Shown: positions 25,891 to 43,890 of the stretch, piece after piece | How positions within the stretch are numbered: the first letter of the stretch is position 1 | How the letters are laid out: each line of letters opens with the position of its first letter | Assembly (NCBI GenBank): GCA_903900155.1 | Contig: CAIUMD010000076.1 | Coordinates: 1 to 64,000, forward strand | DNA: 64,000 nt | Reading direction: 5' to 3' | Source of the DNA: an uncultured Caulobacterales bacterium | Lineage (GTDB): Bacteria > Pseudomonadota > Alphaproteobacteria > Caulobacterales > Caulobacteraceae | Position numbers and translations under genes: made by a program | Notes under the pieces: generated by a model | Database searches by the model: none | The model's input: the letters and a program-made list of their open reading frames with translations, nothing else | Told to the model about the DNA's origin: nothing

Positions 25891-28170
25891 ATGCGACGAC
25901 AGTGGCTTATGGGCGCCGCGGCGGCCCTGGCGGCAGGACCCGCCTGGGCGCAATCCGCGTCGACGGAGACGAGCGGACAGGTTTCTGAACTGGTGGTGAT
26001 CGGCAGCCGCGGGGCGCCGAGATTGACGACCGACACGGCCGTCCCGGTCGATGTGCTGAGCGCCGAGTCCCTGGCCGCCCGCGGCCAGAACGACCTGACC
26101 AAGACGCTGGAATTCATGTCGCCGTCGTTCAACTATCCGCGCACCTCGTCGGGCCCGTCCTCGGCCGGCGCGCGCTCGTTCACCCTGCGCGGCCTGATTC
26201 CCGACCAGACCCTGGTGCTGGTCAACGGCCAGCGCCGCCACGCCTCCTCGATCATCACCTTCAACAATGGCGCATTCCGCGGCTCCGTGCCCGTCGACCT
26301 GAACATGATCCCGCTGACGGCGATCAAGCGGGTCGAGATTCTCCGCGATGGCGCCGCCGCCCAATATGGTTCGGACGCCATCGCCGGCGTCATCAACCTG
26401 GTGCTGCGCGATGAGCCCGGCGGCGCGCACGGATCGGTGCAGTACGGCCAGACCCAGCGCGGCACGGGCAAGACCTTCATCGCCACGGCGCGCCAGGGCT
26501 TCGCCCTGGGCGACGGCGGCTTTGTCACGCTGTCGACCGAGGTCCGCGACCGGGGCGACACCAACGCCGCCGAAATCGATCCGCGTTTTGGCCGCGTCAC
26601 CTCGACCCTGGGCGATCCCCAGAGCACCGACATCCAGGCCGCAGCCAACGCCGAGCTGCCGCTGAAAGGCGGCGCGACCATGTTCGGCTACCTGACCCTG
26701 GGTCGGCGCGAGTCGGAGATGAGCCCGCTCTTCCGGGCGCCGACCGTATTCCCGGCCTTCTACCCCAACGGCTTCCTGCCGATCGTCAATCTCGACCTCA
26801 AGGACCTGGGCGCCAATATCGGCGTGCGCGGAACCTTGGCCGGCTGGAACTGGGAGCTGACCGACACCTTCGGCTATTCCAAGGGCGACTACGGCGTCTC
26901 CAACACCGTCAACACCTCGTTGGGGACCAACAGCCCCAAGGCGTTCTACGGCGGCGGCGCGCGCTACCGGCAGAACCTGGTCAACCTGACGGTTCGCCGG
27001 GCGCTGGACGTGATGGCGGGGGCCAACCTGGCGGCCGGCGTCGAGCATCGGTTCGAGGCCTATGAACTGGTCTCGGGCGAGCCTGGCTCCTACACGCTCT
27101 CAGGCGCCCAGGGCTTTCCTGGCTTCCATCCGCCCTCCCCGGTCGATGTGGACCGCACCGGCCGCAGCGCCTTCATCGACGCCGAGCTCAGCCCGATCCA
27201 GGGCCTGAACCTGGGCGCCGCCGCCCGCTTCGAGGACTATAGCGACTTCGGCGATGCGACGACCGGCAAGCTGACCGCCTTCTGGCGGCCTGCGCCGCTG
27301 ATCGCCCTGCGCGCGGCCGTCAGCACCGGCATCCGGGCGCCGTCGCTGCAGCAGCAATACTTCTCGACGGTCACCAGCCAGCTCAACAACGGCGTGTTGC
27401 AGAACGTCGGCAACTTCGCGGTCACCGATCCGGTGTCGGTGGCCCTGGGCGCCAGCCCGCTGCGGCCGGAAAAGTCGAAGAACTATTCGGCCGGCATTGT
27501 CCTGACGCCCGGCCACGGCCTGACCTTCAGTCTCGACGCGTTCCGCATCGACATCAACGACCGCATCGCGATGACCGAGAATCTGCAAGGCCCGCAAGTG
27601 GCGGCGATCCTGGCCACGAACGGCGTGACCAACGCGGCGGTGGCGCGTTTCTTCACCAACGCCTCCGACACCCGCACCCAGGGCTGGGAAGCCACCCTGC
27701 GGTGGGATGCGCGCCTGGCGCAGGACACGCGTCTGGCCCTGACGATGGGTTACGGCGCCTTCGACACCGATCCGCTGCGCATCCGGACCAATCCGGTGTT
27801 GCCGTCCATCCCCCTGCTGGGCCCGACCTCGATCGACGCCGTGGCTGACGCCCAGCCGCGCCTGAAGGCCCTGGTCAATGCTGAGCTGTCCTGGCGCGCC
27901 TGGCGGTTCACCGCCGACGTCACCGACTTTGGTTCGACCTCGATCCCGTTCGGGACCGGCTCGATGCGGATGCAGGGCAAGACCTCGGTGGACCTTTCGG
28001 CCGCCTGGAGCGTGACCAAGGCCCTGACCGTGACGGCCGGGGTGATCAACGCCGGCGACACCTATCCCAACCGCGTTCCCGGCGAGGCCACCGGTCGGCC
28101 CTACAGCGAGTTCGACCCGATGGGCTTCAACGGCCGTGAATATTTCCTGCGCCTGACTGCGGAGTTCTGA
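25891..28170 (+). CDS. TonB-dependent receptor paired with S1/P1 nuclease
   Basis: A 759-residue receptor. The start at ATG 25891 gives a signal peptide MRRQWLMGAAAALAAGPAWA; codon usage before it is non-coding. TonB-box region SELVVIGSRGAP; plug with TLVLVNGQRRHASS, then AIKRVEILRDGAAAQYGSDAIAG. The barrel ends YFLRLTAEF. The plug is of the BtuB/CirA-like group. The nuclease gene begins 2 bp after the stop, so the two are co-expressed; nucleotides, oligonucleotides or a nucleic-acid-bound ligand are candidate cargos (inference). A terminator-like hairpin abuts the start. Confidence 0.92.
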   Translation: MRRQWLMGAAAALAAGPAWAQSASTETSGQVSELVVIGSRGAPRLTTDTAVPVDVLSAESLAARGQNDLTKTLEFMSPSFNYPRTSSGPSSAGARSFTLRGLIPDQTLVLVNGQRRHASSIITFNNGAFRGSVPVDLNMIPLTAIKRVEILRDGAAAQYGSDAIAGVINLVLRDEPGGAHGSVQYGQTQRGTGKTFIATARQGFALGDGGFVTLSTEVRDRGDTNAAEIDPRFGRVTSTLGDPQSTDIQAAANAELPLKGGATMFGYLTLGRRESEMSPLFRAPTVFPAFYPNGFLPIVNLDLKDLGANIGVRGTLAGWNWELTDTFGYSKGDYGVSNTVNTSLGTNSPKAFYGGGARYRQNLVNLTVRRALDVMAGANLAAGVEHRFEAYELVSGEPGSYTLSGAQGFPGFHPPSPVDVDRTGRSAFIDAELSPIQGLNLGAAARFEDYSDFGDATTGKLTAFWRPAPLIALRAAVSTGIRAPSLQQQYFSTVTSQLNNGVLQNVGNFAVTDPVSVALGASPLRPEKSKNYSAGIVLTPGHGLTFSLDAFRIDINDRIAMTENLQGPQVAAILATNGVTNAAVARFFTNASDTRTQGWEATLRWDARLAQDTRLALTMGYGAFDTDPLRIRTNPVLPSIPLLGPTSIDAVADAQPRLKALVNAELSWRAWRFTADVTDFGSTSIPFGTGSMRMQGKTSVDLSAAWSVTKALTVTAGVINAGDTYPNRVPGEATGRPYSEFDPMGFNGREYFLRLTAEF

Positions 28171-28172
28171 CC

Positions 28173-29141
28173 ATGAAACTGTTGCGCAAAGCCGCCTGCT
28201 CGCTCGTCGCCCTCGCCCTTGCCGCCGGTCCCGCCGGCGCCTGGACGCGGCCGGGCCACATGGTCACCGCCGCCATCGCCTATGACGAGATCGAAAAGCG
28301 TCGACCCGACCTGATCGACACCATCGGCGCGATCCTGGACGCTCACCCCGACCGGGGCGCGTTCCAGGTGGCGGTCGACCGCACCACGGGCCGCGAACGC
28401 CAGCGGCGGATGTTCCTGGAATGCGCCCGCTGGCCCGACGATGCGCGGCAGACGGCCTACGACCATCCCAGCTGGCACATCACCCTGTGGGGCGTGGCCG
28501 AGCCCGACGCCCCGCCCGCCGCCCAGGCCAGGCTCAAGGCGCGAGCGGGCCGCCAGACGGGCGAGGCGCTGGAAGGCCTGGCGCTGAACTATCGCGTTCT
28601 CGGCGATCCGTCGGCTTCGGCGGCGGAGAAGGCCACGGCGCTGTGCTGGCTGCTGCATGCGACCGGCGACATCCACCAGCCGTTCCATACGACCGAGCTG
28701 TTCTCGGCCGCCTATCCGGACGGCGACGCCGGTGCGGGACGACAGTTCCTGATCGACCCGCTGCCGCCCCACCAGCCGATCGCCCTGCACTGGCTATGGG
28801 ACGACAGCATCAGCCGCTCGGGCCTGCCGGCCGACGCCGATGCGCGGGCTCGGGAGATCAAAGCCCTGCATCCGCGCGCGGCTCTGGAGGAACTGAAGGC
28901 TCCGACCGTCCCGGCCAATGCCGAGCCCGACTTCAAAGCCTGGGCCCGCGACGAGAGCCACGCCCTGGCCCGGTCGTTCGCCCTGCCGGCGCGCTCGCCC
29001 ACCAGCCCGACGACGGCTGGCGCCACGCCAGCCTCGGACGGCTACTGGACCAAGGTGCGCACCGTCGCCGAACGACGGGTGGCGATCGCGGGTTATCGGA
29101 TGGCCGATCTGGTCATCGCCGCCATGGATGCGCCGAAGTAG
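28173..29141 (+). CDS. exported S1/P1-type nuclease
   Basis: A 322-residue protein. The signal peptide ends AGPAGA, so the mature chain begins at W24, as required in P1-type nucleases where the N-terminal Trp ligates zinc. Other zinc ligands are seen in WTRPGHMVTA, ARWPDD, the DHPSWH segment and LLHATGDIHQPFHTT, the family's signature block. The predicted activity is cleavage of single-stranded DNA/RNA and 3'-nucleotides outside the cytoplasm. ATG is 2 bp after the TBDR stop with GGAG in the receptor's last codons. Its stop is 6 bp from the convergent LysR stop. Confidence 0.9.
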   Translation: MKLLRKAACSLVALALAAGPAGAWTRPGHMVTAAIAYDEIEKRRPDLIDTIGAILDAHPDRGAFQVAVDRTTGRERQRRMFLECARWPDDARQTAYDHPSWHITLWGVAEPDAPPAAQARLKARAGRQTGEALEGLALNYRVLGDPSASAAEKATALCWLLHATGDIHQPFHTTELFSAAYPDGDAGAGRQFLIDPLPPHQPIALHWLWDDSISRSGLPADADARAREIKALHPRAALEELKAPTVPANAEPDFKAWARDESHALARSFALPARSPTSPTTAGATPASDGYWTKVRTVAERRVAIAGYRMADLVIAAMDAPK

Positions 29142-29147: not shown

Positions 29148-30065
29148 TCAGGCCACGGCCCGGACCGGCGCTTGCGGGCGCCGGTCACGGGCGGCCTCGT
29201 CCTTCAGCCAGGCCCACAGCGGCGCGACCTGATTGCTCCGCAGGCGGCTGGGCTTGGCGACAAGCCGGTAGGCGCCGGGATAACGCACCGCCGGCAGGCC
29301 CAGCTCGACCAGCCGGCCCGAGCTCAGGTGACCGGCCATGATCACGTCGATGCCCGGCGCGATGCCAAGCCCGGCCGCAGCGGCCTCGTACAGCGCTTGG
29401 GCCATGTCGAACGTGCTGGCTTCGCGCGGCAGGCCGCAGTCGACCCCGGCCTCGTGCGACCACCACGCCCACATATCCTGGTGCTGGGCAAAGGTCAGCA
29501 GGCGCTCGTCGGCCAACCGGCGGGTCCCTTCGCGCAGGCGGCGAGCCACCGCGGGCGAGGCGACGGGCGTGATGCAGCCCTGCAGAAGGGTCTCGGCATG
29601 CAGGTCCGCCACGTCGACATCGCCGGCGCAAAGGCCAAGATCCGCCACGCCGGCGCGGATCGCCTCCGCGGTGCGGGTGGTGACGATCGCGACTTCGATG
29701 TGGGGATGAAGGGCGTAGAAGCGCTCGATACGCGGGATCAGCCACCCGACCGCCAGTGAATGCGACAACGAGATGCTGATCTTCTGCGCAGCCGGCTTGG
29801 CCTCGAGATCGCGGGCCGCGCCGAGGATGGCGCGATAGGTCGGCTCCAGGGTGTCCAGGCATGCGCGCCCGGCGTCGGTCAGGCGCATGCCGCCCGGATG
29901 GCGCACGAAGACCTCGTGACCGACAAAGGCGGTAAAGGCCTGGATGCGCCGGGAAAACGCGGCGGGGCTCAAGGCGCAACGGTCCGCGGCGATGCGGAAA
30001 CTGGGCGCGCGGGCCGCCTCGACAAAGGCCTCGATCACCTCGAGCCTTGGAATGCGCCGGGACAT
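29148..30065 (-). CDS. LysR-family regulator (GcvA/AmpR-like)
   Basis: A 305-residue protein. The HTH spans residues 7-66 (LEVIEAFVEAARAPSF, LSPAAFSRRIQAFTAFVG, GGMRLTDAG), and the effector domain shows ISLSHSLAVGWLIPRIERF and VADLGLCAGD. AGGGG lies upstream of ATG 30065. It sits downstream of the PhoD gene on the same strand and convergent with the nuclease gene, and its target is not evident from position. It has no divergent partner, which is unusual for a LysR gene. Confidence 0.88.
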   Translation of the reverse strand: MSRRIPRLEVIEAFVEAARAPSFRIAADRCALSPAAFSRRIQAFTAFVGHEVFVRHPGGMRLTDAGRACLDTLEPTYRAILGAARDLEAKPAAQKISISLSHSLAVGWLIPRIERFYALHPHIEVAIVTTRTAEAIRAGVADLGLCAGDVDVADLHAETLLQGCITPVASPAVARRLREGTRRLADERLLTFAQHQDMWAWWSHEAGVDCGLPREASTFDMAQALYEAAAAGLGIAPGIDVIMAGHLSSGRLVELGLPAVRYPGAYRLVAKPSRLRSNQVAPLWAWLKDEAARDRRPQAPVRAVA

Positions 30066-30160: not shown

Positions 30161-31684
30161 CTATCGGCTGGCGGCGATCTGGGCGCCGGGCCGTTGATCC
30201 TCGATCAAGACCCGCGCCAGGCTTGCGGCGGCGCCTCCTGGATCGGCCTGATCGGCGACAATGCGCAGGTCGACCTCCAGTCGCTGAGGCGTGGCTTCGA
30301 TCAGGGTGTAGCCCGAGCGCTCGATGTCGGCGAAGCGGATGTCGGCGTTGCGGGCGCGGACATCGCCATAACGAGCCTTCGGCGCATGGCTGGCGGCCAG
30401 GCAGGTGGTCACCAGCTCGGTCGCCACGGGCGGCGTATCGGGCCCGCCCTTGCGCAGGTCGTTGACTATGTAGGCGTGGATGTCGCCGCTGAGGACCACC
30501 GCGTTGCGCACCGACGGGCGCGCCAGGCTTCGCATCAGGCGCTCGCGGGCGGCGGCATAGCCGTCCCACTGGTCGGACATCACGCCTTCCGGCGTCTCGA
30601 TCGGCGCGACCACCGTCTGCTGGGCCAGCAGGGTCCAGCGCCCGTGCTCGGCCCTCAAGGTCTCGTCCAGCCAGGCTTCCTGGGCCGCGCCCAGCATGGT
30701 GCGGTCGGCTGCCGCCAGGTCGGGACAATCGCGGCGCGGGCGGTTGCCGCTCTGGCCCGGCGGATTGCAGGCCTGGACCGAGCGGTATTGCCGTCCATCC
30801 AGCACCGGCATGCTGACCAGATCACCCCAGGCCAGACGGCGATAGAGCCTTGGCCCGTCGGGCCGGGTCCACAGACTGGGCCGCACCGGCAGGTGCTCGA
30901 AATAGGCCTGGTAGGCCGCCGCCCGGCGGCGGGCGAAAACGACGGGGTCCAGCGCCTTCAGATTGGCCAGGTCGGCATAGTCGTTCTCGACTTCGTGGTC
31001 GTCCCAGGTCACGACCCAGGGCGCCAGCCGATGAGCCTCGCGCAGGTCGGGGTCGGATTTGTAGATCGCGTGCCGGCGGCGATAGCCGTCCAAGTCGGTG
31101 GGTTCGGGCGTATCGAACGTGCGAACCTTGGGAAACTGGGCGTAGCTGTTCTCGTAGATGTAGTCGCCCAACTGCACGACGAGATCGGGCTGGGCGGCGA
31201 CCATGTCGCGATAGGCGGCGAACCATCCCAGTTCGAAATGCTGGCAGGAACTGACCGCGATCCGCGCGCGCCCGGCGCGCTCGGGCGTGGTGGCGGTGCG
31301 GCCAACCGGGCTGACCGAGCCCAAGGCGTGGAAACGATACCAATAGGTTCGACCGGGACGCAGGCCCTCGATCTCGACGTGCACGGCATGGCCCAGGGTC
31401 GGGCTCGCCGCGCGCCGGCCGCGCCGCACGATGCGCCGGAAGGCCTCATCCTCGGCGACCTCGTAGGCGACCGGCGCGGCCGGGGCGTCCAGTGGCGCGC
31501 CGCCGGCGCTGAGACGGGTCCACAGGACAAAGCCATCGGTCGACGGATCGCCGCTGGCCACGCCCATCGCGAAAGGTTCGGCGGGCGCGGCGCGACGACT
31601 CTCCAGCCCGTCCGCCGCCGTCGCGCGCGCCAGGAAGAGACCGCTCGAGGCGGCCATCACGGCGCGGCGAGTCAGCAGGGACAT
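30161..31684 (-). CDS. phoD: alkaline phosphatase D family protein (PhoD), Tat-exported
   Basis: A 507-residue protein from ATG 31684. The leader MSLLTRRAVMAASSG is a twin-arginine signal (RR at 6-7). An N-terminal PhoD Ig domain (PFAMGVASGDPSTDGFVLW) is followed by the metallophosphoesterase core: VVQLGDYIYENSY, VTWDDHEVENDYAD, LDGRQYRS and VVLSGDIHAYI, which hold the Fe/Ca ligands of PhoD. Predicted activity is on phosphodiesters and monoesters such as wall or lipid-derived phosphates. A longer start at 31750, 2 bp behind the TBDR stop, keeps the RR motif and cannot be excluded. It is the last gene of the sigma/FecR/TBDR unit. Confidence 0.9.
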   Translation of the reverse strand: MSLLTRRAVMAASSGLFLARATAADGLESRRAAPAEPFAMGVASGDPSTDGFVLWTRLSAGGAPLDAPAAPVAYEVAEDEAFRRIVRRGRRAASPTLGHAVHVEIEGLRPGRTYWYRFHALGSVSPVGRTATTPERAGRARIAVSSCQHFELGWFAAYRDMVAAQPDLVVQLGDYIYENSYAQFPKVRTFDTPEPTDLDGYRRRHAIYKSDPDLREAHRLAPWVVTWDDHEVENDYADLANLKALDPVVFARRRAAAYQAYFEHLPVRPSLWTRPDGPRLYRRLAWGDLVSMPVLDGRQYRSVQACNPPGQSGNRPRRDCPDLAAADRTMLGAAQEAWLDETLRAEHGRWTLLAQQTVVAPIETPEGVMSDQWDGYAAARERLMRSLARPSVRNAVVLSGDIHAYIVNDLRKGGPDTPPVATELVTTCLAASHAPKARYGDVRARNADIRFADIERSGYTLIEATPQRLEVDLRIVADQADPGGAAASLARVLIEDQRPGAQIAASR

Positions 31685-31752
31685 CGGTGAGATCCGCTCG
31701 TGAGAAGGAGACGGAGGCGATCCGGCCGCGACGACCGGACCGCCCCGCATGG

Positions 31753-34251
31753 TCAGAAGTCGAACCGGGCGCCGATCCCGTAGGTGGCCGGCGCGCCGAC
31801 GAGGCGAGCCGCGCCGTTCAGCTCGGGGAAATAGACCTTGTCGGTGATGTTGCGCCCATAGGCGTAGAGCGTCCAGTTCGAGGGCGTCGCCAGGTCCACC
31901 CGGGCGTTGACCAGGGTGTAGGCCTTGGCGGTGTTGCCCGGCGCGGCGTTGAGGCGGTTGGACTCCTCGCCATGGTGCGTGACGCCCAGGCGGCTGCGCA
32001 GAGACCAGCCGTCCTTCAGGGTGACGCTGTGGTTCAGCGACGCCGTGGCCGAGACGTCCGGCGCCCCCGGCAGCGGGTCGCCAACCGTCTGCAGCACGTC
32101 GGCTACGCGGTTGGACGAGAATGACAGGATCTCGGTGTTGAGCCAGGCGGCGTTGACGTCGAAGGTCAGGCCCTGGCGCTGGGTGCGCAACAGCTGGGCG
32201 CTGAGCGCGACCTCGATACCCTTGCTGCTGGCCTTGCCGACATTGGCGCGGCCGTTGGTGTCGTTGGCCAAGCGGGTCGTGGCCTGCAGCTCGCTGAAGC
32301 GATAGTCGAAGGCGTCCAGCGACAGGCGCAGGCGCGGCGTGGTCCAGCGCAGACCCGCCTCGTAGGCGCGCACGGTCTCCGACGCGAACGGCTTGGTCTC
32401 GGCCACGGTGAAGATCGAGGTGCCATCGAAGCCGCCGCCGCGATAGCCGGTGCCGCCCGAGACGAAGACGTTCAGGTTGGAAGTGACGTCATACTTCACG
32501 GTCAGGCGGCCCGAGACGTTGTCGTCCTCGAACTTCTCGTCCCACGAAAACGGGTTGGTGGTGGCGAAGGTGGTCGTGAAGGTGCTGATGCCCCACGGAT
32601 TGCGGTCGACATTGCGGCCGACATAGTTGGCGTTGTCCCGGGTGTAGCGCAGGCCGGCCGACACCTGAAGCCGGTCGATCAGGCGGTAGTCGACCTGGCC
32701 GAACAGGGCGAAGCTTTTGCGCTTCTGGCGGTGCAGGTTGTCGTAGTTGGTCAGGGCCGAATAGCTGATCCAGTTGGTGTCGAACTTGACGTCGTCGGTC
32801 ACGTAGAAGGCGCCGGCGATCCAGTCCAGCTTGCCGCCGGTGTCGTCGGCCAGCCGCAGCTCCAGCGACGACTGGCTGAGCTTTTCGTTGGCGTCGAAGT
32901 ACGAGGCCGGATACGGCGAGCCGTCGCCATTGCCCTGCACCGAGCGCTTGCTGCCCTGCCAGCCGCCGACGGCGGTGAAGTTCAGGTTCTCGCGGACCTT
33001 GTGGCTGAGGGTCGCCGAGCCGCCATAGATGTCGATGCGCTGGGTCGGATAGCCCACCGAATAGAACTCGTAGGGGTCATCGTTCTCGCCGGCGTTGGCG
33101 ACCGTGGCGTCCTGAGCGCGCGAGATCCGATCATACTGGCGGGTGTCGCCCCGGTCGCGGCTGCCGAACAGCTTCACGACCAGGTCGCTCTCGGGCGCCA
33201 TCTTGAAATCGAAGGTGGCGCGACCGGCGAACAGGTCCTTGTCGCCGAAGCCCTCGCGACGGCCCGGATCGACCAGCGCCGGCACCTGGGTCTGAACCAC
33301 GCCGCGCACCGACGGACGGAAGCCGGCCAGCAGACCCGCGCCGGCGCCGGTCATGAAGCCGCCGCCGTTCTGGGCCAGTACGGACAGGCGCACGCCCAGG
33401 TTCTCGCTAACCGGACCGCCGACCGAGGCTTCCATCTCGGTATAGTCGTAGCTGCCGTATTCGACGCGGCCGGAGCCCTCCAGCACCTCGCCGGGACCAC
33501 GCGTGATGGCGTTGATGACGCCGGCGGTGGTGTTGCGGCCGTAGAGCGTGCCTTGCGGACCTTTCAACACTTCGATGCGGTCGAGGTCGAACAGCGGCAT
33601 GCCCAGATAGGCGTTCGAGGTCTGGTAGACGCCGTCGACATGCATCGCGACGGAGGGGTTGCCGTTGGGCTTGTAGTCGTCGGCGCCGCCGATGCCGCGG
33701 ATGCTGATCAGGCCATAGTTGGTGCCGCCGAACGCATAGTTGACCGACACGCCCGCGACCTGGTCGACCAGGTCAACGACGTTGGTAATGCCGCGTCGTT
33801 GGGCGTCGCCGCCCTCGACCACGGTCACGGCGATGGGAACGTTTTCGATCCGCGCCGAGCGCTTCTGGGCGGTGACGACGACTTCTTCCAGTTCGGCGAC
33901 GACCGGATTTTCCTCCACCGAGATCAAGAAGGTGCGCGGACCCGTCAAGGTCGCCTTCAGGCCCGAGCCGGCCAGCAGGTCGCGCAGCGCCTCGGCCGGG
34001 GCGCGGGTCCCGACCACGGCGTTGGCGCGCTTGCCCTTCACCAGGTTCGATGCATACAGCACCTGCACGTCGGCTTGCTTGGCGAAGGCCGGCAGGGCCA
34101 GTTCCAGCGGCTGGGTCGGCAGGGTGAAGGCCACGGCCGGCGTGCTCGCCTGCCGGGCCAGGGCCGGCGCGGCGGCGCCCAGGACGGCGATGGCGCAGCA
34201 GGCCATCAGGCCGCGGCGAAGACCGGCGGCGTGGGAAACTCGGTTCGTCAT
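31753..34251 (-). CDS. TonB-dependent transducer with STN domain, paired with PhoD
   Basis: An 832-residue protein. The signal peptide ends PALARQ. Residues about 40-115 are a secretin/TonB N-terminal (STN) domain (FTLPTQPLELALPAFAKQAD, LRDLLAGSGLKATL), as in FecA-type transducers that signal to FecR. Then EEVVVTAQKRS, the plug (ISIRGIGGADDYK, RIEVLKGPQGTLYGRNTTAG), and a barrel ending YGIGARFDF. It is encoded directly after FecI/FecR homologues, so its expression is presumably ligand-induced through surface signalling. PhoD downstream suggests the ligand is an organophosphate or a released product rather than only an iron chelate (inference). Confidence 0.93.
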   Translation of the reverse strand: MTNRVSHAAGLRRGLMACCAIAVLGAAAPALARQASTPAVAFTLPTQPLELALPAFAKQADVQVLYASNLVKGKRANAVVGTRAPAEALRDLLAGSGLKATLTGPRTFLISVEENPVVAELEEVVVTAQKRSARIENVPIAVTVVEGGDAQRRGITNVVDLVDQVAGVSVNYAFGGTNYGLISIRGIGGADDYKPNGNPSVAMHVDGVYQTSNAYLGMPLFDLDRIEVLKGPQGTLYGRNTTAGVINAITRGPGEVLEGSGRVEYGSYDYTEMEASVGGPVSENLGVRLSVLAQNGGGFMTGAGAGLLAGFRPSVRGVVQTQVPALVDPGRREGFGDKDLFAGRATFDFKMAPESDLVVKLFGSRDRGDTRQYDRISRAQDATVANAGENDDPYEFYSVGYPTQRIDIYGGSATLSHKVRENLNFTAVGGWQGSKRSVQGNGDGSPYPASYFDANEKLSQSSLELRLADDTGGKLDWIAGAFYVTDDVKFDTNWISYSALTNYDNLHRQKRKSFALFGQVDYRLIDRLQVSAGLRYTRDNANYVGRNVDRNPWGISTFTTTFATTNPFSWDEKFEDDNVSGRLTVKYDVTSNLNVFVSGGTGYRGGGFDGTSIFTVAETKPFASETVRAYEAGLRWTTPRLRLSLDAFDYRFSELQATTRLANDTNGRANVGKASSKGIEVALSAQLLRTQRQGLTFDVNAAWLNTEILSFSSNRVADVLQTVGDPLPGAPDVSATASLNHSVTLKDGWSLRSRLGVTHHGEESNRLNAAPGNTAKAYTLVNARVDLATPSNWTLYAYGRNITDKVYFPELNGAARLVGAPATYGIGARFDF

Positions 34252-35316: not shown

Positions 35317-35870
35317 CAGCCCGCCTCCCGCAACGCATCGCGCAGCACGGCCATCGACCGCACCAGGTTCTTCTCGACGGCGCTGACGGAGATATTCAGC
35401 CGAGCGGCGATCTGGGCGTGGCTCATGTCCTCGAAGCGACGAAGGATGACGATGGTGCGCGCCCGGGGGGACAAGGCCTTGAGGGCCGCCTGGATACGCT
35501 CGAGATTCTGCCGCCCGCCAACGACGTCCTCCGCCCCCGGAAGATCGTCGGCCAGATCGATTCGGTCCAGGTCCACGGCGTTCAGCATGGGCCGCTTGCG
35601 CTCTCGTTTGACCTTGTCGCGAAGTAGGTTGGCCGCCGCCTCGAACACGTAGCCATCGACGCTTTCCAGCGTCATCAGGCCGGGGCGTCGCAGCAGCCGC
35701 ACGAACAGGTCCTGCACCAACTCTTCGCTGTCAGGCTGCGAGCCGGTGCGCTGCGTGAAGTAACGCAGCAGTGGAAGTCGCAGGCGGCGGGTCAACGCCT
35801 CGAAGCGTTCGGGACCGGTCGAGCCGGACGCCTCGCGCGCCGCGCCACGATCGGAGGCTGACATGGACAT
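35316..35870 (-). CDS. ECF sigma factor, FecI-like
   Basis: A 184-residue protein. Region 2 appears at about residues 40-95 (TGSQPDSEELVQDLFVRLLR, SVDGYVFEAAANLLRDKVKR) and region 4 at about 115-180 (ALSPRARTIVILRRFEDMSH, IAARLNISVSAVEKNLVRSM). The start is chosen at ATG 35870 (MSMSASDRG); ATG 35903 lies in the loop of the upstream hairpin, and none has a strong ribosome-binding site. It should direct transcription of the downstream transducer/PhoD genes and be controlled by FecR. Confidence 0.9.
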   Translation of the reverse strand: MSMSASDRGAAREASGSTGPERFEALTRRLRLPLLRYFTQRTGSQPDSEELVQDLFVRLLRRPGLMTLESVDGYVFEAAANLLRDKVKRERKRPMLNAVDLDRIDLADDLPGAEDVVGGRQNLERIQAALKALSPRARTIVILRRFEDMSHAQIAARLNISVSAVEKNLVRSMAVLRDALREAG

Positions 35871-35888
35871 GCAGCGCCCATGCCAGCC

Positions 35889-35918
35889 CCTCGCGACAAT
35901 CATGTGAATGTCGCGAGG
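35889..35918. terminator. strong hairpin between the PI-PLC-like and sigma-factor genes
   Basis: CCTCGCGACA/TGTCGCGAGG is a perfect 10-bp inverted repeat with a 10-nt loop, starting 7 bp after the phospholipase-like stop codon. It has no T-run. It probably separates the two transcription units or serves as an operator for the sigma-factor promoter. Confidence 0.5.
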
Positions 35919-35924: not shown

Positions 35925-37109
35925 TCAGCAGTTTCCGCCGCTGACCGGGTTGCACCGCGCCCCGCCCTTGAAGGGCGCGACGTGGTAGTCGTTCCCGAAC
36001 AGGTTCGGGGCCTGGTAGTAGTCGGTCGAGACCACCTGCGGGCCGGCGGCCAGGGTGGTGTCGCGGCGACCCGTGTCGTTGCGGCGGGCCTCCTCGGTGT
36101 CGATGTCCGAGCGCGAGCGGACGATGTAGCCCTTCTTGACCAGCCCGGTAACCATCTTGGTGTCGGCCAGGGCGTTGTCTTCCTGCATGAACGCCGCGTG
36201 GGCGTCGCCCGGCTTGGCGTCGATGAACGAGGTCCGGCCCTTCAGCGACGGATGGCCGACGAGGTAGGCCCCCAGATACTGCTGCTGGCCGGCCGGGCTC
36301 AGCACCAGGAAGATGAACTTGCCGCGCGCCTTGGCCACGGTGGGCCAGCCGCCGGCCAGCACGGCCTCTTCCAGGGTGGCATGGGCTCCACGCACGTCGT
36401 CGGGCGTGATCAGCTTGTCACGGCCGATGACCTCCAGGATCGAGCGGTCGTACTCGTCCCAGGCGGCGGCGTCGAACGGCAGCACCTTGACCGCGCCCGG
36501 CAGCGGCAGGGCTCCGGCCTTGGGCTCGATGATCATGAACACCGGCGTGTGGCCCGGATTGGCGTCCGACCACTGGCGCAGATCCTTCAGGCACAGGCGG
36601 AAGGTCGGGCACTGACTGCGCACGTCGATGTCCGACATGTGCAGGACCTTCAGGCCCGGCTTGTCCATACCTTCGGCGAAGAACGGCGCGAGATCCCTCT
36701 CGCCCTTCTCGCGCAGTACGCGATAGGCCATCGGGTCGGCGAAACGGCCGCCTTCCGGGTCGTGGTGCAGGTCGAGCTCCAGGCTGCGGACGCCCGCCGC
36801 CAGCTGGATCGACAGCGGCGGCTCGACATAGTCCAGGCTGCGGCGGATGTCGGGGGTCCCGCCGTTGGTGAACTCCGACTCGTAGGCCTTGCGCTGTTCC
36901 GGCGTCAGCCGGGCCAGCACGGCCTCGATGGCCGCCGTCACCTGCGGCGCGGCATAGGCCAGAACGCGCGGATCGGCCGGCAGGTGGTAGCTGTTGTGGG
37001 TGCCGACCACCTGGATCTGGTTCAGCTTCAGGGCGTCGATCTTGTCCTGAGCGGCGGCCGGGGCGGTCAGGGCCAGGGCCGCCAGCAGGGCGAGAGCTTG
37101 GGTCTTCAT
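35925..37109 (-). CDS. secreted phosphatidylinositol-specific phospholipase C-like protein
   Basis: A 394-residue protein. The signal peptide ends APAAAQD. Motifs of the Ca2+-dependent PI-PLC family (PF16670) are VVGTHNSYHLPADPR (catalytic His), LELDLHHDPEGG, LKVLHMSDIDVRSQCPTF, VFMIIEPKAG and, near the end, DYYQAPNLFGNDYHV. The predicted reaction is cleavage of a glycerophosphoinositol-type phosphodiester. The start is ATG 37109 because AGGAG lies 8 bp upstream. It starts 11 bp after the TBDR stop, so the pair is one operon. Confidence 0.86.
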   Translation of the reverse strand: MKTQALALLAALALTAPAAAQDKIDALKLNQIQVVGTHNSYHLPADPRVLAYAAPQVTAAIEAVLARLTPEQRKAYESEFTNGGTPDIRRSLDYVEPPLSIQLAAGVRSLELDLHHDPEGGRFADPMAYRVLREKGERDLAPFFAEGMDKPGLKVLHMSDIDVRSQCPTFRLCLKDLRQWSDANPGHTPVFMIIEPKAGALPLPGAVKVLPFDAAAWDEYDRSILEVIGRDKLITPDDVRGAHATLEEAVLAGGWPTVAKARGKFIFLVLSPAGQQQYLGAYLVGHPSLKGRTSFIDAKPGDAHAAFMQEDNALADTKMVTGLVKKGYIVRSRSDIDTEEARRNDTGRRDTTLAAGPQVVSTDYYQAPNLFGNDYHVAPFKGGARCNPVSGGNC

Positions 37110-37120: not shown

Positions 37121-39427
37121 CTAGCGGCGGACGGTCAGGCGGACGCCGACGAAGCGCGGGTTGGCGCGGATGGCGGTAGGGACGCCGAAGCTCTTGCCGG
37201 AATTGCCCATGTCGCGGATCCAGTCCTGGTCGAGCAGGTTCGTGCCAAAGGCCTCGACCGCCCAGCGGCCGTCGGACGCCTCGACGCCAGCGCGCAGGTT
37301 CAGCAGGCCGAAGGCCTTCTGCTGCTCGCTGGACAGGTTGTCGCTGTTGAAGAAGTAGCTCGAGCGGTGCGCATAGGTGCCCCGGAGATAGGCCTCGAGC
37401 GTGGCGCTGACCGGCTGGGTCCAGTCGGCGCCGACCGAGAAGGTGGTCTTCGGCGCCAGGCGGAAGCGGTTGCCCGACAGGTCGTAGACCACGCCCCCGA
37501 CCTTGTCGCGGAAGTCCAGGTACTCGGTGTTCAGGAAATTGTAGCCGGCGAAGACCCGCAGGGTGTCGGTCAGGCGCTGGTCGTAGCTGGCTTCCACGCC
37601 CCAGGCCTTGGCGGCGCCGGCGTTGACCGTGCCCTGGGTGACATCGAGGCTGAGCGTCTGGAAGTTGGTGTAGTCGTAGTAGAAGGCCGAGATGTCGAAG
37701 CTGCCGCCGGCGATCGGCGCGCGGCCCTTGGCCCCCAGCTCATAGCTCCAGATGGTCTCGGCCTTCACCGGCGAGGGCGTGGCCAGGACGGTGGTTGCGG
37801 TCGGGTTGGTGATGTTGATCTGCGGATAGCCGCCGCGCACGCCCTTGGCGACCGAGCCGTAGAGGTTCACCGCCGGGGTCAGCTTGTAGACCACCGCCAG
37901 GCGTGGGGTGAAATACGAGAAGTCGTCCGAGGTGGTGAAGGTCTGGCCGCGCGAATTGCCCAGGAGGCCGTTGGGCACGGCGATCGGCGCGCGGCCGTCG
38001 CGTGAGGTCACCGAGGTGGACGCGGCCAGGTCGGCCTCGTCCCAGGCCTGGCGCGCGCCCAGCTCGACGGTCAGGCGCTCGGTCAGGTCGACGCTGAGGT
38101 TGCCGTAGAGGGCCACGCTGGTGCGCTTGCTAGCGATCGTCTTCAGCGAGTCGATGCGGGTCGACACCGGCAGGAAGACGCCGCCGCCGACCGGGATGGC
38201 CGGCACCGGGGTCAGCCTGGCCGGGAAGCCGCCGACCAGGTACTGCTCGTTGACGCCCAGGGTCAGGCCGTCATGCACCACGTCGCGGAACCAGCTGCCG
38301 CCGAACTGGGCGCGGACCTTGCCGCCGTTGTCATAGGCGAAGCGCATCTCCTGGCTGTTGCTCTCCTGGCGCTGGTCCTCGCGGCCGTAGAGGAAGTTGT
38401 AGCTGGTGCCGTCCGGGTCCCAGCCGTTGTCGAAGTCGATCTTGCGCCAGCCGGTGATGCTGTTGATCGTCCAGTCGCCGCGCTTCCACTCGCACAGCAG
38501 GGTGACGGTGGAGACCTCGCGGTCGAAGCGGTTCTCCATCGGGTTCTGGGCCGCGGTCGAGAAGGCGCTGGTGTCGCCGCCCGGCGAGGGCAGCGCGATG
38601 GCCTTGGCCACCGTGTCGCCGTCCTGGTCGCGCTGGTAGCCGGCCACCAGATCGAAGGTCAGGTCCTGCACCGGCCGCCAGCGCAGCGACAGGCGCGCGG
38701 CCCACAGGTCGTCGTCGTTCAGCTTGTGACCCGGATTGGCCAGGTTCTCCATGTAGCCCGCGCGCTCGCGACGGCGCACGGCCAGGCGCGCGGCCAGCTT
38801 GTCTTCGACGATCGGCGCGTTGACGATCGCCGTGGCGCTGTAGGCCTTGTAGTTACCGACCTCGCTCTGGAACTGGGCCGAGGCCTTGTCCAGATCCGCC
38901 TTGCGGGTGTGAATCGAGAAGGCCCCGACCGCCGCGCCGCGGCCGTAAAGCGTGCTCTGCGGGCCGCGCGCGATCTCGACGCGGTCGATGTCGTAGAGTT
39001 CGCTGAGCGAGCCCTTGGTGCGGCTGGAGTCGACGCCGTTGACGAAGATCGAGATGCCCGGCTCCGACGCCGCATCGGCGGTCGGGGCCTCGATGCCGCG
39101 GATCACATAGCTGGGCGAGCTGTCGTTCTGCTGCTGGATCAGCACGCCCGGCGTCAGGCTGGCCACGTCCTCCCACGAGCGCAGGTCGAAGCGATCCAGG
39201 GTCTCGCCCGAAAAGGCCTTCAGCGACAACGGCACGTCCTTGGCCGCCTGCTCGCGGAACTGGGCGGTGACGACGATCTCCTCGATCTCGCCTGTCTTGA
39301 GGTCTGGGGCCTGGGGATCCGACGCCGGCTTCGTCTGAGCATGGGCCGCGCAGGCCAGGCCCAGGGCCGCCAGCGAGACCGAGGCCGCGAATCGATTGCG
39401 TCCGCTGCGTGTCTTGATGATTTTCAT
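37121..39427 (-). CDS. TonB-dependent receptor paired with the PI-PLC-like enzyme
   Basis: A 768-residue receptor. The signal peptide ends AAHAQ. EEIVVTAQFREQ is followed by the plug (YVIRGIEAPTADA, ISIFVNGVDSSRTKGS, VEIARGPQSTLYGRGAAVG) and a barrel with YGSVAKGVRGGYPQ, ending FVGVRLTVRR. The last residue is Arg rather than the usual aromatic, which is atypical for barrel assembly. It is divergent from a TetR gene, with a spaced direct repeat between them. Its ligand is perhaps inositol phosphate or a lysolipid product of the next gene (inference). Confidence 0.92.
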   Translation of the reverse strand: MKIIKTRSGRNRFAASVSLAALGLACAAHAQTKPASDPQAPDLKTGEIEEIVVTAQFREQAAKDVPLSLKAFSGETLDRFDLRSWEDVASLTPGVLIQQQNDSSPSYVIRGIEAPTADAASEPGISIFVNGVDSSRTKGSLSELYDIDRVEIARGPQSTLYGRGAAVGAFSIHTRKADLDKASAQFQSEVGNYKAYSATAIVNAPIVEDKLAARLAVRRRERAGYMENLANPGHKLNDDDLWAARLSLRWRPVQDLTFDLVAGYQRDQDGDTVAKAIALPSPGGDTSAFSTAAQNPMENRFDREVSTVTLLCEWKRGDWTINSITGWRKIDFDNGWDPDGTSYNFLYGREDQRQESNSQEMRFAYDNGGKVRAQFGGSWFRDVVHDGLTLGVNEQYLVGGFPARLTPVPAIPVGGGVFLPVSTRIDSLKTIASKRTSVALYGNLSVDLTERLTVELGARQAWDEADLAASTSVTSRDGRAPIAVPNGLLGNSRGQTFTTSDDFSYFTPRLAVVYKLTPAVNLYGSVAKGVRGGYPQINITNPTATTVLATPSPVKAETIWSYELGAKGRAPIAGGSFDISAFYYDYTNFQTLSLDVTQGTVNAGAAKAWGVEASYDQRLTDTLRVFAGYNFLNTEYLDFRDKVGGVVYDLSGNRFRLAPKTTFSVGADWTQPVSATLEAYLRGTYAHRSSYFFNSDNLSSEQQKAFGLLNLRAGVEASDGRWAVEAFGTNLLDQDWIRDMGNSGKSFGVPTAIRANPRFVGVRLTVRR

Positions 39428-39454: not shown

Positions 39455-39473
39455 ACGTAACGGTGACGTAACG
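39455..39473. promoter_or_regulatory. direct-repeat operator candidate between TBDR and TetR genes
   Basis: ACGTAACG occurs twice, at 39455-39462 and 39466-39473, exactly 11 bp apart, i.e. on one face of the helix. It lies in the 75-bp divergent spacer beside an AT-rich stretch. It is the likely site of the TetR protein at 39503. Confidence 0.45.
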
Positions 39474-39502
39474 ATAATAATCTTCAATCCGGTGAAGCGC
39501 TG

Positions 39503-40117
39503 ATGGCGGTTTCAAGACAAGACGAGACGACGGTTTCTGACGCCCCCCGAGGCCGCGGGCGGCCTCGGGACCCCCAGGTTGAGCGCGCCGTTCGCTTCGC
39601 CGTCTGGGAGGCCCTGGGCGAGGTCGGCTACGACCGGCTGACCATGGACGAGGTCGCGCGCCGCGCCGGCTGCTCCAAGCCCGCCCTCTATCGCCGCTGG
39701 CCCGGCAAGCAGCCGATGGTGCTGGAAGCCCTGGAGGGCTTCATCGAGGACACGGTCCGCGCCCGCCCCGTGCGTATCGGCGAACCTCTGGACAGTCTGG
39801 TCGACTGGGTGGCCGGCCTGGTCATCTTCCTGTCCGGTCCGGGCCGCCGGGCGCTGCTGGCCCTCTCCCAGGCCCGCGCCACCGAGCCCGAACTGGCCGA
39901 GGCCCTGGACCGGATCGTCGACGAGGACCGCCCCAAGTTCGCCGTCGCCCTGCGCACGGCCTGGGGCCAGGACACGCCCGACGACGCCGTCCACCGGGCG
40001 ATCGACGCGCTGCTCGGCGCGGTGTTCTGGCGGGTGGCGCTGATGGGCCGGACGATGTCCGAGGCCGAGGTCAAGGCCCTTTGTGAAGACGTGCTGCGCA
40101 TGCGCACGCCAGCCTAG
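39503..40117 (+). CDS. TetR/AcrR-family regulator
   Basis: A 204-residue protein. The N-terminal basic RGRGRPRDPQVE leads into a TetR HTH at about residues 25-75 (VWEALGEVGYDRLTMDEVAR, RAGCSKPALYRRWPGK), and a helical C-terminal domain of the TetR_C type follows. It is divergent from the receptor at 39427 and presumably controls the receptor/PI-PLC operon. Its stop lies 3 bp from the end of the PhoX-like remnant on the other strand. Confidence 0.87.
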   Translation: MAVSRQDETTVSDAPRGRGRPRDPQVERAVRFAVWEALGEVGYDRLTMDEVARRAGCSKPALYRRWPGKQPMVLEALEGFIEDTVRARPVRIGEPLDSLVDWVAGLVIFLSGPGRRALLALSQARATEPELAEALDRIVDEDRPKFAVALRTAWGQDTPDDAVHRAIDALLGAVFWRVALMGRTMSEAEVKALCEDVLRMRTPA

Positions 40118-40420: not shown

Positions 40421-40504
40421 GACCTTGATCTGCTCGTCGGTCGCGGCCCCGGCATCCCAGCACCGCCCCGTCCGAACAGCCTTCTTGGAAACGACAGCTA
40501 AGCC

Positions 40505-41595: not shown

Positions 41596-43890
41596 TCAGA
41601 ACTTCACGTTGGCTTCGACGCCGAACGTGCGCGGCTCGTTGAAGATCGCGTACGTGCCGAGCGCGGCGTTGTAGTTGCGCAGGAAGGCGTAGGACTTGTT
41701 GGTCAGGTTGCGTGACCAGACCGACAGTTGCAGGGCCGGCGCGCCCTCGGCCAGCCGGATGTCGGCCAGGGCCAGGCGGCCGTTCATCGTGAACGACTTA
41801 TCGCTCAGCGTCGGGTCCGTCGTGCTGGTCATCTGGGCGTCGGCGAAATTGGCGTCCAGGTGGGCCTTGAACATCGCGCCGAAGGCCGGACGGACATAGT
41901 CGGCGGCCACGCTGCCGGCGTTCTTGGGGCTGTACAGCGGATAGATGGTCGACTGGGCGTTGGTGAAGGGGTTGAAGGCCTTCGACAGCTTGATGTCGGT
42001 ATAGGCGTAGCTGGCCGACAGGGTCAGGCCCTCGACCGGCATAATGGTCAGGTCAGCCTCGAAGCCCCTGGTCTTGCCCGTGGCGGCGTTGGTGGTTTCC
42101 AGCGTGCCGCGGTTGTTGTTGAGGATCAGGACGTTGAAGTCGACCTGGGCGTCCTTGATGTCGCCGGTGAAGGCCGCGACGTTCAGGCGACCGCGACGGT
42201 TCCAGAACTCGGTCTTGGCCCCGACCTCGAACATCTCGACCTTTTCCGGGTTATAGGCGCGGTAGGTCAGCGAGCGCGAGTTGGCGCCGCCCGCCTTATA
42301 GCCCGTGGCCCAGCGGCCATAGAGGTTGATGTCATTGGTGACGTCATAGGCCACGCTGACCATCGGGTCGACGTGACTCCAGCTCGCGTCCAGCGGCACG
42401 CGGCCGACGACGGTGTTCTTGTTGCTGTCGATGTAGCTGGGCAGGACGCCGTTGACGATGTCCAGCGAGCCCTTCTTGGCGTCCTTGGTGTAGCGGGCGC
42501 CGACCGTGACGTGCAGCTTGTCGTCCAGCACCGGCGGGGTCCAGGCGGCCTGGCCGAAGGCGCCGTAGCTGGTCGTTTCGACGTGGCTGGCGCGGTCCAG
42601 GATGATGGTGTTGAAGTCGATCGACAGCTGCGTATAGGCCGTGCCCGTGGCGTTCCACTGCAGCGAGTTCGGGGTCTGGGCGTTGTCGCTGACCTTTTCG
42701 CGGAAGTAGAAGACGCCGCCGACATATTCCAGACGATCGGTCTTGCCGACCAGCTGGAACTCCTGGCTCACCTGGTCCTGCCACACGCGGGCGACGCTGT
42801 AGCGGGCGAACGGCGCGTTCGGCTGGAACACCGACAGGGCCACCGCGCCATTGTCGAACTGGGTCTGGGTCAGCTTGCGGTACGAGCTGATCGACTTCAG
42901 GTCCAGATTGTCGGCCAGCTTCCAGGTCAGGTTCAGGCGGTGGCCGAAGGTGTCGCCCTCGCTCATCTGCAGCGGCACGCCGACGCTGGCGCGCTTGGCG
43001 CGATCGGGCTGGGCCGGGGTCAGCGGCGCCAGGGCCAGGGCGCCCTTCTTCTCCAGCTGCACATAGTAGGGCGTTGAGCCGTCGTACGAGAGGTCGTAGG
43101 CGTAGTCGGCGCTGAAATTGTCGGACGGACGCCAGGCGAACTCCAGGTTCACGCCGCGCTTGTCATAGCTGTTGAAGTCCGGCTGGCCCGAGGTGGTCGG
43201 GTTGATGGTCGTGCCGTCGCGCTTGGTCAGCAGGGCGTCGACCTTGACGCTGAAGCCCTTGTACTCGGGCAGATCGATGTGGGTTTCCAGCTTGTAGCCA
43301 TTGTAGTTGCCGTAGCCGAGCGTGGTGTTCATGCCGAACACGCCGGTCGGGGCCTTGGTGACGATGCTGACGGCGCCGCCTTCGGTGTTGCGGCCGAACA
43401 GGGTGCCTTGCGGCCCCTTGAGAACCTCGATGCGCTCGACGTCATAGAGCGCCGAGCCCAGGCCCTGGGCGCGGCCCAGATAGACGCCGTTGACATAGAC
43501 GCCGACGGCCTGGTCGCGGGCGGGCTGGTTGGCGTCGCCCAGGGCGCCGATGCCGCGCATGCCGATCGTCAGGGCCGACTTGCGCGCGAAGAACGGGGCC
43601 ACGCGCAGCGAGGGGATCGAGCCGTCGCCCAGGTCTTCCACCGACTGGATGTGACGGGCCTTCAGGGCCTCGCTGTCCATGGCCGAGATAGCGATGGGGG
43701 TGTCCTGCAGGTTGGTCTTGCGCTTCTGGGCGGTGACCACGACCTCTTCCAGGCTGATCGCGCTGTCGGCCCCGGCGGGTTCGGCCGCCGTGGCAGGTTC
43801 AGCAGCATGCGCCACGCCGCACAGCGCCAGGACGGCCACGCCCGTCAGCAGGCCGGCGCGCAGCGCCGACGTCTCGAAACCCCGTTTCAT
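41596..43890 (-). CDS. TonB-dependent receptor paired with the tyrosine-phosphatase-like protein
   Basis: A 764-residue receptor. The signal peptide ends GVAHAAE. LEEVVVTAQKRKTNLQD is followed by the plug (IGMRGIGALGDANQPARDQA, VGVYVNGVYLGRAQG, RIEVLKGPQGTLFGRNTEGG) and a barrel with YGRWATGYKAGGAN, ending FGVEANVKF. AAGGGGA precedes ATG 43890. It is divergent from the tandem TetR gene, the probable regulator. The phosphatase-like gene and PhoX remnant downstream suggest a phosphate-ester ligand (inference). Confidence 0.93.
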   Translation of the reverse strand: MKRGFETSALRAGLLTGVAVLALCGVAHAAEPATAAEPAGADSAISLEEVVVTAQKRKTNLQDTPIAISAMDSEALKARHIQSVEDLGDGSIPSLRVAPFFARKSALTIGMRGIGALGDANQPARDQAVGVYVNGVYLGRAQGLGSALYDVERIEVLKGPQGTLFGRNTEGGAVSIVTKAPTGVFGMNTTLGYGNYNGYKLETHIDLPEYKGFSVKVDALLTKRDGTTINPTTSGQPDFNSYDKRGVNLEFAWRPSDNFSADYAYDLSYDGSTPYYVQLEKKGALALAPLTPAQPDRAKRASVGVPLQMSEGDTFGHRLNLTWKLADNLDLKSISSYRKLTQTQFDNGAVALSVFQPNAPFARYSVARVWQDQVSQEFQLVGKTDRLEYVGGVFYFREKVSDNAQTPNSLQWNATGTAYTQLSIDFNTIILDRASHVETTSYGAFGQAAWTPPVLDDKLHVTVGARYTKDAKKGSLDIVNGVLPSYIDSNKNTVVGRVPLDASWSHVDPMVSVAYDVTNDINLYGRWATGYKAGGANSRSLTYRAYNPEKVEMFEVGAKTEFWNRRGRLNVAAFTGDIKDAQVDFNVLILNNNRGTLETTNAATGKTRGFEADLTIMPVEGLTLSASYAYTDIKLSKAFNPFTNAQSTIYPLYSPKNAGSVAADYVRPAFGAMFKAHLDANFADAQMTSTTDPTLSDKSFTMNGRLALADIRLAEGAPALQLSVWSRNLTNKSYAFLRNYNAALGTYAIFNEPRTFGVEANVKF

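What the first reader, a model, noticed from the sequence alone, without database searches (positions are those of the whole stretch)
25891..43890. Island of four TonB receptors each paired with a different exported phosphoesterase
Seen: four receptor genes, each immediately next to an exported enzyme that cleaves phosphate esters: S1/P1 nuclease (2 bp gap), PhoD, PI-PLC-like (11 bp gap) and a tyrosine-phosphatase-like protein (14 bp gap), plus a PhoX-like remnant. Known: the enzyme families attack nucleic acids, phosphodiesters, phosphoinositides and phosphate esters. Inference: the region is a modular scavenging island in which each receptor imports the substrate or product handled by its neighbour, rather than an iron chelate. 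Each pair has its own candidate regulator nearby (TetR, double TetR, FecI/FecR).
Basis: partly seen in the sequence, partly recalled or inferred. Interest (0 to 1): 0.75.

Follow-up and report, generated by a model that had tools for sequence, protein, structure and literature searches.

The report
TonB receptors paired with phosphoesterases
A bacterium carries side by side four outer-membrane uptake receptors, each next to a different exported enzyme that cuts phosphate esters; similar pairs recur in relatives, so they are probably small uptake loci for organic phosphates, two of which may belong to one family aimed at inositol phosphates.

Summary
In detail: four TonB-receptor genes, each directly followed on the same strand by an S1/P1 nuclease, PhoD, PI-PLC-C1 or Y_phosphatase3 gene. 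The "PhoX remnant" is not supported. Pairing is not chance: in this genome 9 of 11 full-length genes of these families follow a receptor, and four pairs within 18 kb came up in 13 of 20,000 label shuffles. Recurrence elsewhere is strong for the phosphatase pair (24 of 30 loci), the window's PLC subfamily (10 of 10) and PhoD orthologues (4 of 4), weak for S1 (3 of 17, window included). Local regulators recur too (tandem TetR; ECF/FecR; LysR once). The four together were not seen elsewhere.

Two revisions. None of the four pair promoters has a Pho box, though the same scan finds one at a pstC-like gene and at another PI-PLC operon of this genome, so the pairs look locally regulated. And PLC and phosphatase modules look like one family: one receptor clade is paired with PLC in five genomes and with the phosphatase in two; both use tandem-TetR regulators; a PLC-promoter element has its second-best genome match at a phosphatase module. 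The phosphatase folds like MptpB. Substrates remain inferred.

The parts
25031..25729 (+). TetR-family regulator upstream of the S1 pair
   Evidence: PF00440 E 1.2e-13; not among the genes seen beside this pair in relatives
25891..28170 (+). TonB-dependent receptor of the S1/P1 pair
   Evidence: PF00593 E 3.2e-39, PF07715; 56-59% identical receptors next to S1 homologues in G116 and G088
28173..29141 (+). S1/P1 nuclease, exported by eye
   Evidence: PF02265 E 6.8e-28; PDB match S1/P1 nuclease 8qjl E 4e-5
29148..30065 (-). LysR-family regulator, possible partner of the S1 pair
   Evidence: PF00126 and PF03466; a 46% identical LysR beside the S1 pair in G116, none found in G088
30161..31750 (-). 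PhoD-type phosphatase/phosphodiesterase
   Evidence: PF09423 E 1.4e-95; PhoD 2yeq E 5.4e-102; orthologues 75-86%
31753..34251 (-). TonB-dependent receptor of the PhoD pair, with STN domain
   Evidence: PF00593, PF07715, PF07660; 82-93% identical in 4 of 4 orthologous loci
34369..35316 (-). FecR-like regulator
   Evidence: PF04773; present in 4 of 4 orthologous PhoD loci
35316..35903 (-). ECF sigma factor
   Evidence: PF08281 and others; present in 4 of 4 orthologous PhoD loci
35925..37109 (-). PI-PLC-C1 (Ca-dependent PI-PLC family), longer subfamily, exported by eye
   Evidence: PF16670 E 2.8e-104; PDB 3h4w PI-PLC1 E 9.9e-16
37121..39427 (-). TonB-dependent receptor of the PI-PLC pair
   Evidence: PF00593 E 2.5e-40; 44-47% homologues next to PLC in G068, G075, G094, G098
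39457..39474 (+). promoter element RTNACGGTNACGTNACGA, candidate operator
   Evidence: only perfect match in the genome; the only one with 1 mismatch is in the C19 phosphatase-module promoter. Pattern was written from this site and the G068 PLC promoter
39503..40117 (+). TetR-family regulator divergent from the PI-PLC pair
   Evidence: PF00440, PF16859
40505..41581 (-). Y_phosphatase3 with MptpB-like fold and N-terminal FN3-like domain, exported by eye
41596..43890 (-). TonB-dependent receptor of the phosphatase pair
   Evidence: PF00593 E 5.1e-33; 69-89% identical in 6 of 6 fetched orthologous loci
43958..43974 (-). conserved promoter element ACATAACATTCGTTCTA, candidate operator
   Evidence: 0-1 changes in 7 of 7 aligned promoters; only perfect match in the genome; not found at the C19 and C105 phosphatase modules
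43951..45345 (+). tandem-TetR regulator (two TetR_N stretches), divergent; likely start near 44047-44095
   Evidence: PF00440, 2 stretches; 51-71% identical in 6 of 6 fetched orthologous loci

Best explanation
The region is a set of four self-contained uptake modules, each made of a TonB-dependent receptor, a phosphoesterase directly downstream and a local regulator, that have come together in this genome. Shown: gene content, order, operon-like spacing, recurrence of each module elsewhere (weakly for S1). Inferred: the receptor pulls a phosphate ester across the outer membrane with TonB energy; the enzyme hydrolyses it in the periplasm or at the surface; phosphate and the dephosphorylated remainder then enter by inner-membrane carriers; the local regulator switches the module on when its substrate is present. 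For PhoD, the STN domain on the receptor plus FecR and an ECF sigma factor suggest that binding at the receptor itself induces the operon. The PI-PLC and Y_phosphatase3 modules are probably one family, with inositol phosphates or phosphoinositide head groups as the most likely ligand class.
Against: No substrate, expression or transport data. No Pho box at the four pair promoters. S1 pairing in 3 of 17 loci only, window included. In the commoner PLC subfamily none of the 30 loci has a receptor directly upstream on the same strand; 16 have one divergent or downstream within 1.5 kb and 14 none. The phosphatase also occurs without a receptor, even in close kin (L232, 77-78% identical; L234, L235), in 34 of 80 named loci. 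PLC and phosphatase lie within 10 kb in only 2 genomes of the family sample (G000, G103; read by eye off), and in G103 the PLC is separated by an isochorismatase and a small ORF. The shared promoter element is absent at up to 2 mismatches from 6 of the 10 PLC loci and from the window and C105 phosphatase modules. The P-loop has N where the MptpB-type signature has H.
Confidence: 0.6

Rival explanations
1. Carbon or head-group scavenging: the modules serve to obtain inositol, glycerol or nucleosides, and phosphate release is incidental. The receptor takes up the ester or its dephosphorylated product and local regulators respond to the carbon compound.
For: No Pho box at the four pairs although a pstC-like gene and the C62 PLC operon have one; the same window holds receptor loci with pectin-active enzymes and purine-nucleoside genes; the neighbouring regulators are TetR, LysR and ECF/FecR.
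Against: The common denominator of the four adjacent enzymes is phosphate-ester cleavage, and none of the 14 genes called between 25118 and 45345 was annotated as an inositol or nucleoside catabolic gene.
Confidence: 0.25
2. Iron uptake: the receptors import ferric complexes of phosphate esters (phytate, nucleotides) or siderophores, and the enzymes strip the ligand.
For: ECF/FecR/STN signalling is the classic ferric-citrate design (recalled); PMC3400609 notes that phytic acid is used for chelating Fe (passage).
Against: No siderophore reductase or ABC importer among the genes of the island. Fur boxes were not tested.
Confidence: 0.08
3. The modules act on lipids, signals or toxins of other organisms or of the cell's own envelope rather than on nutrients.
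For: MptpB-type phosphatases are best known from host-directed roles (PMC3091653, passages); 34 of 80 named relatives stand without a receptor directly upstream.
Against: Tight operon-like pairing with a receptor in many Alpha- and Gammaproteobacteria.
Confidence: 0.06

Closest known systems
Phosphate utilisation systems (PUS) of Flavobacterium (PMC8115612, passages read)
   Same: TonB-dependent receptors co-localised with periplasmic phosphomono- and diesterases; the figure legend of the PUS clusters also names a 'phosphatidylinositol phospholipase-like' protein
   Different: PUS I/II use SusC/SusD pairs and are induced by phosphate depletion; here no SusD was annotated in the island and no Pho box was found at the pairs
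TBDT adjacent to phytase in Citromicrobium (PMC3400609, passages read)
   Same: receptor gene next to an inositol-phosphate-cleaving enzyme, used to infer the substrate
   Different: other enzyme families here, four pairs together, with recurring regulators
PhoB regulon of Caulobacter crescentus (PMC11208175, section 11 and passages read)
   Same: TonB receptors, phosphatases, phytase and phospholipase C under one starvation response
   Different: the four pairs lack a recognisable Pho box; the C62 PI-PLC operon of this genome has one
Organophosphate hydrolase-TonB complex of sphingomonads (PMC7142613, passages read)
   Same: an esterase working with TonB-dependent uptake of organophosphates as phosphate source
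   Different: described as co-purification with the TonB complex, not as a receptor-enzyme gene pair
MptpB/ALP-type phosphatases (PMC3091653) and Pho16B, a soil PTP with phytase activity (PMC6409689); abstracts and passages read
   Same: MptpB-like fold; Pho16B has a predicted signal peptide and cleaves InsP6
   Different: P-loop here reads NCSAGKDRTG, an FN3-like N-domain is present, and the gene is coupled to a receptor and a tandem-TetR regulator. Pho16B is promiscuous; its authors say InsP6 (about 30% of the best rate) is not its primary substrate under the conditions tested
Carbohydrate utilisation loci with TonB receptors, CUT (PMC1790865, passages read)
   Same: receptor plus degradative enzyme plus regulator
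   Different: phosphoesterases in place of carbohydrate enzymes

Membership tests
MptpB-type atypical lipid phosphatases (ALP) | strict P-loop HCXXGKDR[TA]G | tested here: not met
   window reads NCSAGKDRTG. C, A, G, D and R of the loop are invariant in 26 of 26 rows; in the 19-row alignment the first residue is N or H and K is Q in five relatives
MptpB-type atypical lipid phosphatases (ALP) | fold of MptpB | tested here: met
MptpB-type atypical lipid phosphatases (ALP) | phosphoinositide phosphatase activity | not testable with these tools
   needs an enzyme assay
Flavobacterium-type PUS | TonB receptor beside phosphoesterase | tested here: met
Flavobacterium-type PUS | SusD-like partner lipoprotein (PUS I/II) | tested here: not met
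   no SusD family among the genes of the island (gene list)
Flavobacterium-type PUS | induction by phosphate depletion | not testable with these tools
   no expression data
PhoB regulon | Pho box in the promoter | tested here: not met
   4 or more mismatches at the four pair promoters; positive control at a pstC-like gene found with 1. In 15 promoters of related pairs the best site had 3 mismatches in 4 and 4-5 in 11
FecIRA-type cell-surface signalling (PhoD pair) | ECF sigma + FecR + receptor with STN domain | tested here: met
PI-PLC-C1 | Pfam family over full profile | tested here: met
   1-329 of 329, E 2.8e-104
S1/P1 nuclease | Pfam family over full profile | tested here: met
   1-255 of 258, E 6.8e-28; metal-ligand residues seen by eye only, from recalled motifs
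PhoD | Pfam PhoD and PhoD_N | tested here: met
PhoX (remnant) | PF05787 similarity | tested here: not met

The most novel reading that the evidence does not exclude
PI-PLC-C1 and MptpB-like phosphatases of TonB-rich Proteobacteria form one family of receptor-coupled loci for inositol phosphates or phosphoinositides, controlled by tandem-TetR repressors and independent of PhoB, in which receptors and enzymes are exchanged between modules. This would give many environmental relatives of the 'virulence' phosphatase MptpB a nutritional role.
Probability: 0.35. Interest if true: 0.68.

Novelty: new variant of a known kind. Interest (0 to 1): 0.5.

Why it matters
This genome has over 100 TonB receptors, and in such genomes most substrates are unknown (general knowledge). 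Recurring receptor-enzyme-regulator modules tie specific receptor clades to phosphate esters and give testable ligands. The partner swap between PI-PLC and phosphatase suggests a shared ligand class, and points to organic-phosphorus uptake that is switched by substrate rather than by phosphate starvation. It would also offer a non-pathogenic role for environmental relatives of MptpB.

Tried and rejected
PhoX remnant: rejected for lack of any PhoX hit. Chance clustering: rejected. PhoB control of the four pairs: rejected at sequence level, though in 4 of 15 promoters of related pairs a site with 3 mismatches was found. Island as a conserved unit: not seen in the loci fetched; in G035 the phosphatase and PhoD modules lie on different large contigs, in G138 PhoD stands beside the other type of PLC operon; in G126 PLC and phosphatase lie on different contigs, both near contig ends, so nothing follows from that. 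L285: a 720-aa gene next to PLC that I first took for a receptor has GH92 domains and its neighbour DUF218, not TetR, so that PLC has no receptor of its own there. Genome-wide linkage of PLC and phosphatase as a test: only 2 genomes within 10 kb in the family sample, too few to argue from; class-level searches found few genomes with either (4 of 385 and 19 of 385). First genome-contig scan with PLC found nothing. Naming the organism: not achieved; the nearest named hits of the phosphatase are Caulobacter records. Fur boxes and inositol catabolism genes elsewhere in the genome were not tested. Literature: nine full-text searches; in the titles and abstract starts listed I saw none that couples Y_phosphatase3/MptpB-type phosphatases to TonB receptors; for PI-PLC-like proteins near TonB receptors the PUS legend of PMC8115612 is prior art. 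The held library lacks most subscription journals.

Mended on the second reading: PhoD loci with the receptor directly upstream are 13 of 30, not 15 (two of those I first counted are convergent); results against the reading on the commoner PLC subfamily, on the promoter element and on Pho16B were added; confidence of the best explanation lowered from 0.62 to 0.60 for this.

Full report
WHAT IS THERE. The window is part of contig C76 of a 4.94-Mb draft genome with 111 TonB-receptor barrel matches. Pfam confirms four receptor genes, each directly followed on the same strand by a gene for an S1/P1 nuclease, a PhoD phosphatase, a PI-PLC-C1 and a Y_phosphatase3. Gaps are 2, 2, 11 and 14 bp with the starts named in the parts list. 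Neighbouring regulators are TetR and LysR (S1 pair), ECF plus FecR (PhoD pair, whose receptor has an STN domain), TetR (PLC pair) and a protein with two TetR_N stretches (phosphatase pair). The claimed PhoX remnant at 40118-40504 has no support.

IS IT MORE THAN CHANCE. I fetched the surroundings of the receptors of this genome (about 1.0 Mb with the window; in part), called genes with a codon-usage script and found 112 receptor genes or fragments. Of full-length genes of the four families 9 of 11 follow a receptor: phosphatase 3 of 3, PLC 2 of 3, PhoD 3 of 4, S1 1 of 1 (two of the four own PhoD rows were not printed and are taken to be those on C35 and C65 seen). The binomial tail is 1.6e-13 to 1.1e-12. 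Of 67 genes that follow a receptor on the same strand within 250 bp, 66 were scanned: PhoD 4, Y_phosphatase3 3, PI-PLC-C1 2, plus the S1 gene, so 10 of 66. Four pairs within 18 kb was reached in 13 of 20,000 label shuffles (ten labelled receptors, one of them a fragment; the fourth PhoD was too divergent for my script and was not labelled).

CONSERVATION. Phosphatase: 101 of 149 sampled genomes of the family have a match at E<=1e-20; of the 30 best loci, window included, 24 have a receptor immediately upstream on the same strand (one of the six misses runs off its contig). In GTDB contigs 46 of the best 80 loci do, Alphaproteobacteria 34 of 45 and Gammaproteobacteria 10 of 19 (more loci exist than were kept). 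Misses include close kin (L232) and the Bacilli and Myxococcia listed. A tandem-TetR gene stands divergent in 6 of 6 fetched orthologous loci (51-71% identical) and in 13 of the 46. In this genome only four tandem-TetR genes were found in the fetched receptor neighbourhoods; three stand at the three phosphatase pairs. PLC: in the longer subfamily, picked by me by match length, 10 of 10 loci have the receptor directly upstream, and 9 of these have a tandem-TetR-like gene directly or about 1.4 kb upstream, by weak hits of 27-43 bits; three were checked by Pfam and all have TetR_N, two of them twice. In five fetched loci of the C62 subfamily, own copy included, the order receptor-ECF-FecR-receptor-PLC is kept; three others fetched have a receptor downstream. 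In the commoner subfamily, the 30 loci, none has a receptor directly upstream on the same strand; 16 have one divergent or downstream within 1.5 kb. PhoD: ECF-FecR-receptor-PhoD in 4 of 4 orthologues of 75-86%; 13 of the 30 best loci, window included, have the receptor upstream, two more are convergent and one has it downstream. S1: a receptor is adjacent in 3 of 17 loci, window included; the two nearest homologues both sit beside a 56-59% identical receptor, one with a 46% identical LysR, one in reversed order.

PHOSPHATE CONTROL. A Pho-box pattern with up to one mismatch gave 14 sites in the genome against 1 for the reversed control. One stands about 105 bp before a pstC-like gene and one 112 bp before the first receptor of the C62 PI-PLC operon. 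Sites with up to three mismatches precede that receptor in the 5 of 5 genomes fetched; this limit is lenient, so the 5 of 5 is suggestive only. At the four pair promoters of the window the best sites have 4 or more mismatches; in 15 promoters of related pairs 4 have a site with 3 and 11 have 4-5. The four pairs therefore look locally controlled.

PLC AND PHOSPHATASE MODULES AS ONE FAMILY. (i) In a receptor tree, five PLC-paired and two phosphatase-paired receptors (own C19 and Caulobacter sp. RHG1) form one clade with SH-aLRT 100. Trees that hold all phosphatase-paired, or all PLC-paired, receptors together are rejected (AU p 6e-76 and 2e-59; the groups were tested after a first tree had been seen, and the tree warns of long branches meeting at the base of this clade, not inside it). 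The C19 receptor is 49-61% identical to the five PLC-paired ones, while the C19 phosphatase is 68% identical to the window phosphatase and its receptor only 26% identical to the window one. (ii) Both kinds stand with tandem-TetR genes. (iii) The element RTNACGGTNACGTNACGA, written from the window PLC promoter and that of G068, has 11 matches in this genome at up to 2 mismatches (3 for the reversed control); the perfect one is the window PLC promoter and the only one with 1 mismatch is the C19 phosphatase promoter. It is in the PLC promoters of G094 and G075 with 1 and 2 mismatches, but absent at that limit from six other PLC loci and from the window and C105 phosphatase modules. (iv) Physical neighbours: the window; a Sphingobium MAG with tandem-TetR, receptor and phosphatase convergent with a PLC about 160 bp away (L285); in G005 a receptor 49% identical to the window phosphatase receptor, without a phosphatase after it, divergent from a tandem-TetR, receptor and PLC module. 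G103 has a PLC some 1.3 kb upstream of a receptor-phosphatase pair with an isochorismatase and a small ORF in between. Overall linkage is rare, so I rest the case on (i) and (ii), with (iii) as support.

MECHANISM AND STATUS. Shown: composition, spacing, recurrence, regulators, absence of Pho boxes at the pairs. Inferred: import of the ester by the receptor, hydrolysis by the partner, substrate-driven induction. Receptor-phosphoesterase adjacency as such is known (PMC8115612, PMC3400609), as is joint control of TonB receptors and phosphatases in Caulobacter (PMC11208175). Not seen in the nine searches named under Tried and rejected are the tandem-TetR modules with an MptpB-like phosphatase and the exchange of enzymes on one receptor clade.

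Noticed in passing
window 1298-7591: A receptor-like gene (OMP_b-brl_4/TonB barrel, 2959-6201) stands between an adenosine-deaminase-like gene and a purine nucleoside permease (NUP) gene: a likely nucleoside uptake locus.
   Followed up: no
window 15748-24813: Pectin-type locus: MFS_2 carrier, pectinesterase, receptor 18874-22269, and a gene with glucuronyl esterase and pectic lyase domains.
   Followed up: no
window 55000-55017 and 55182-59507: A Pho-box-like site with one mismatch lies before a receptor with a weak STN match that is followed by an SbmA/BacA-like ABC transporter.
   Followed up: partly
L330 (G000:C62), and L326-L329: A second PI-PLC operon (receptor-ECF-FecR-receptor-PLC) carries a Pho-box-like site (1-3 mismatches) before its first gene in the 5 of 5 genomes fetched.
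   Followed up: yes
L137 (G000:C105) 2396-9208: A phosphatase-receptor-tandem TetR module is followed by an MFS_2 carrier and fragments of a receptor and of PhoD, apparently a decayed PhoD pair.
   Followed up: partly
L127 (G138:C175) 2360-14084: A PI-PLC operon with ECF/FecR and the PhoD module meet tail to tail, another cluster of two phosphoesterase modules.
   Followed up: partly
L193 (G000:C54) 2777-5322: A fourth tandem-TetR-like gene near a receptor, beside a 371-aa gene without Pfam match.
   Followed up: no
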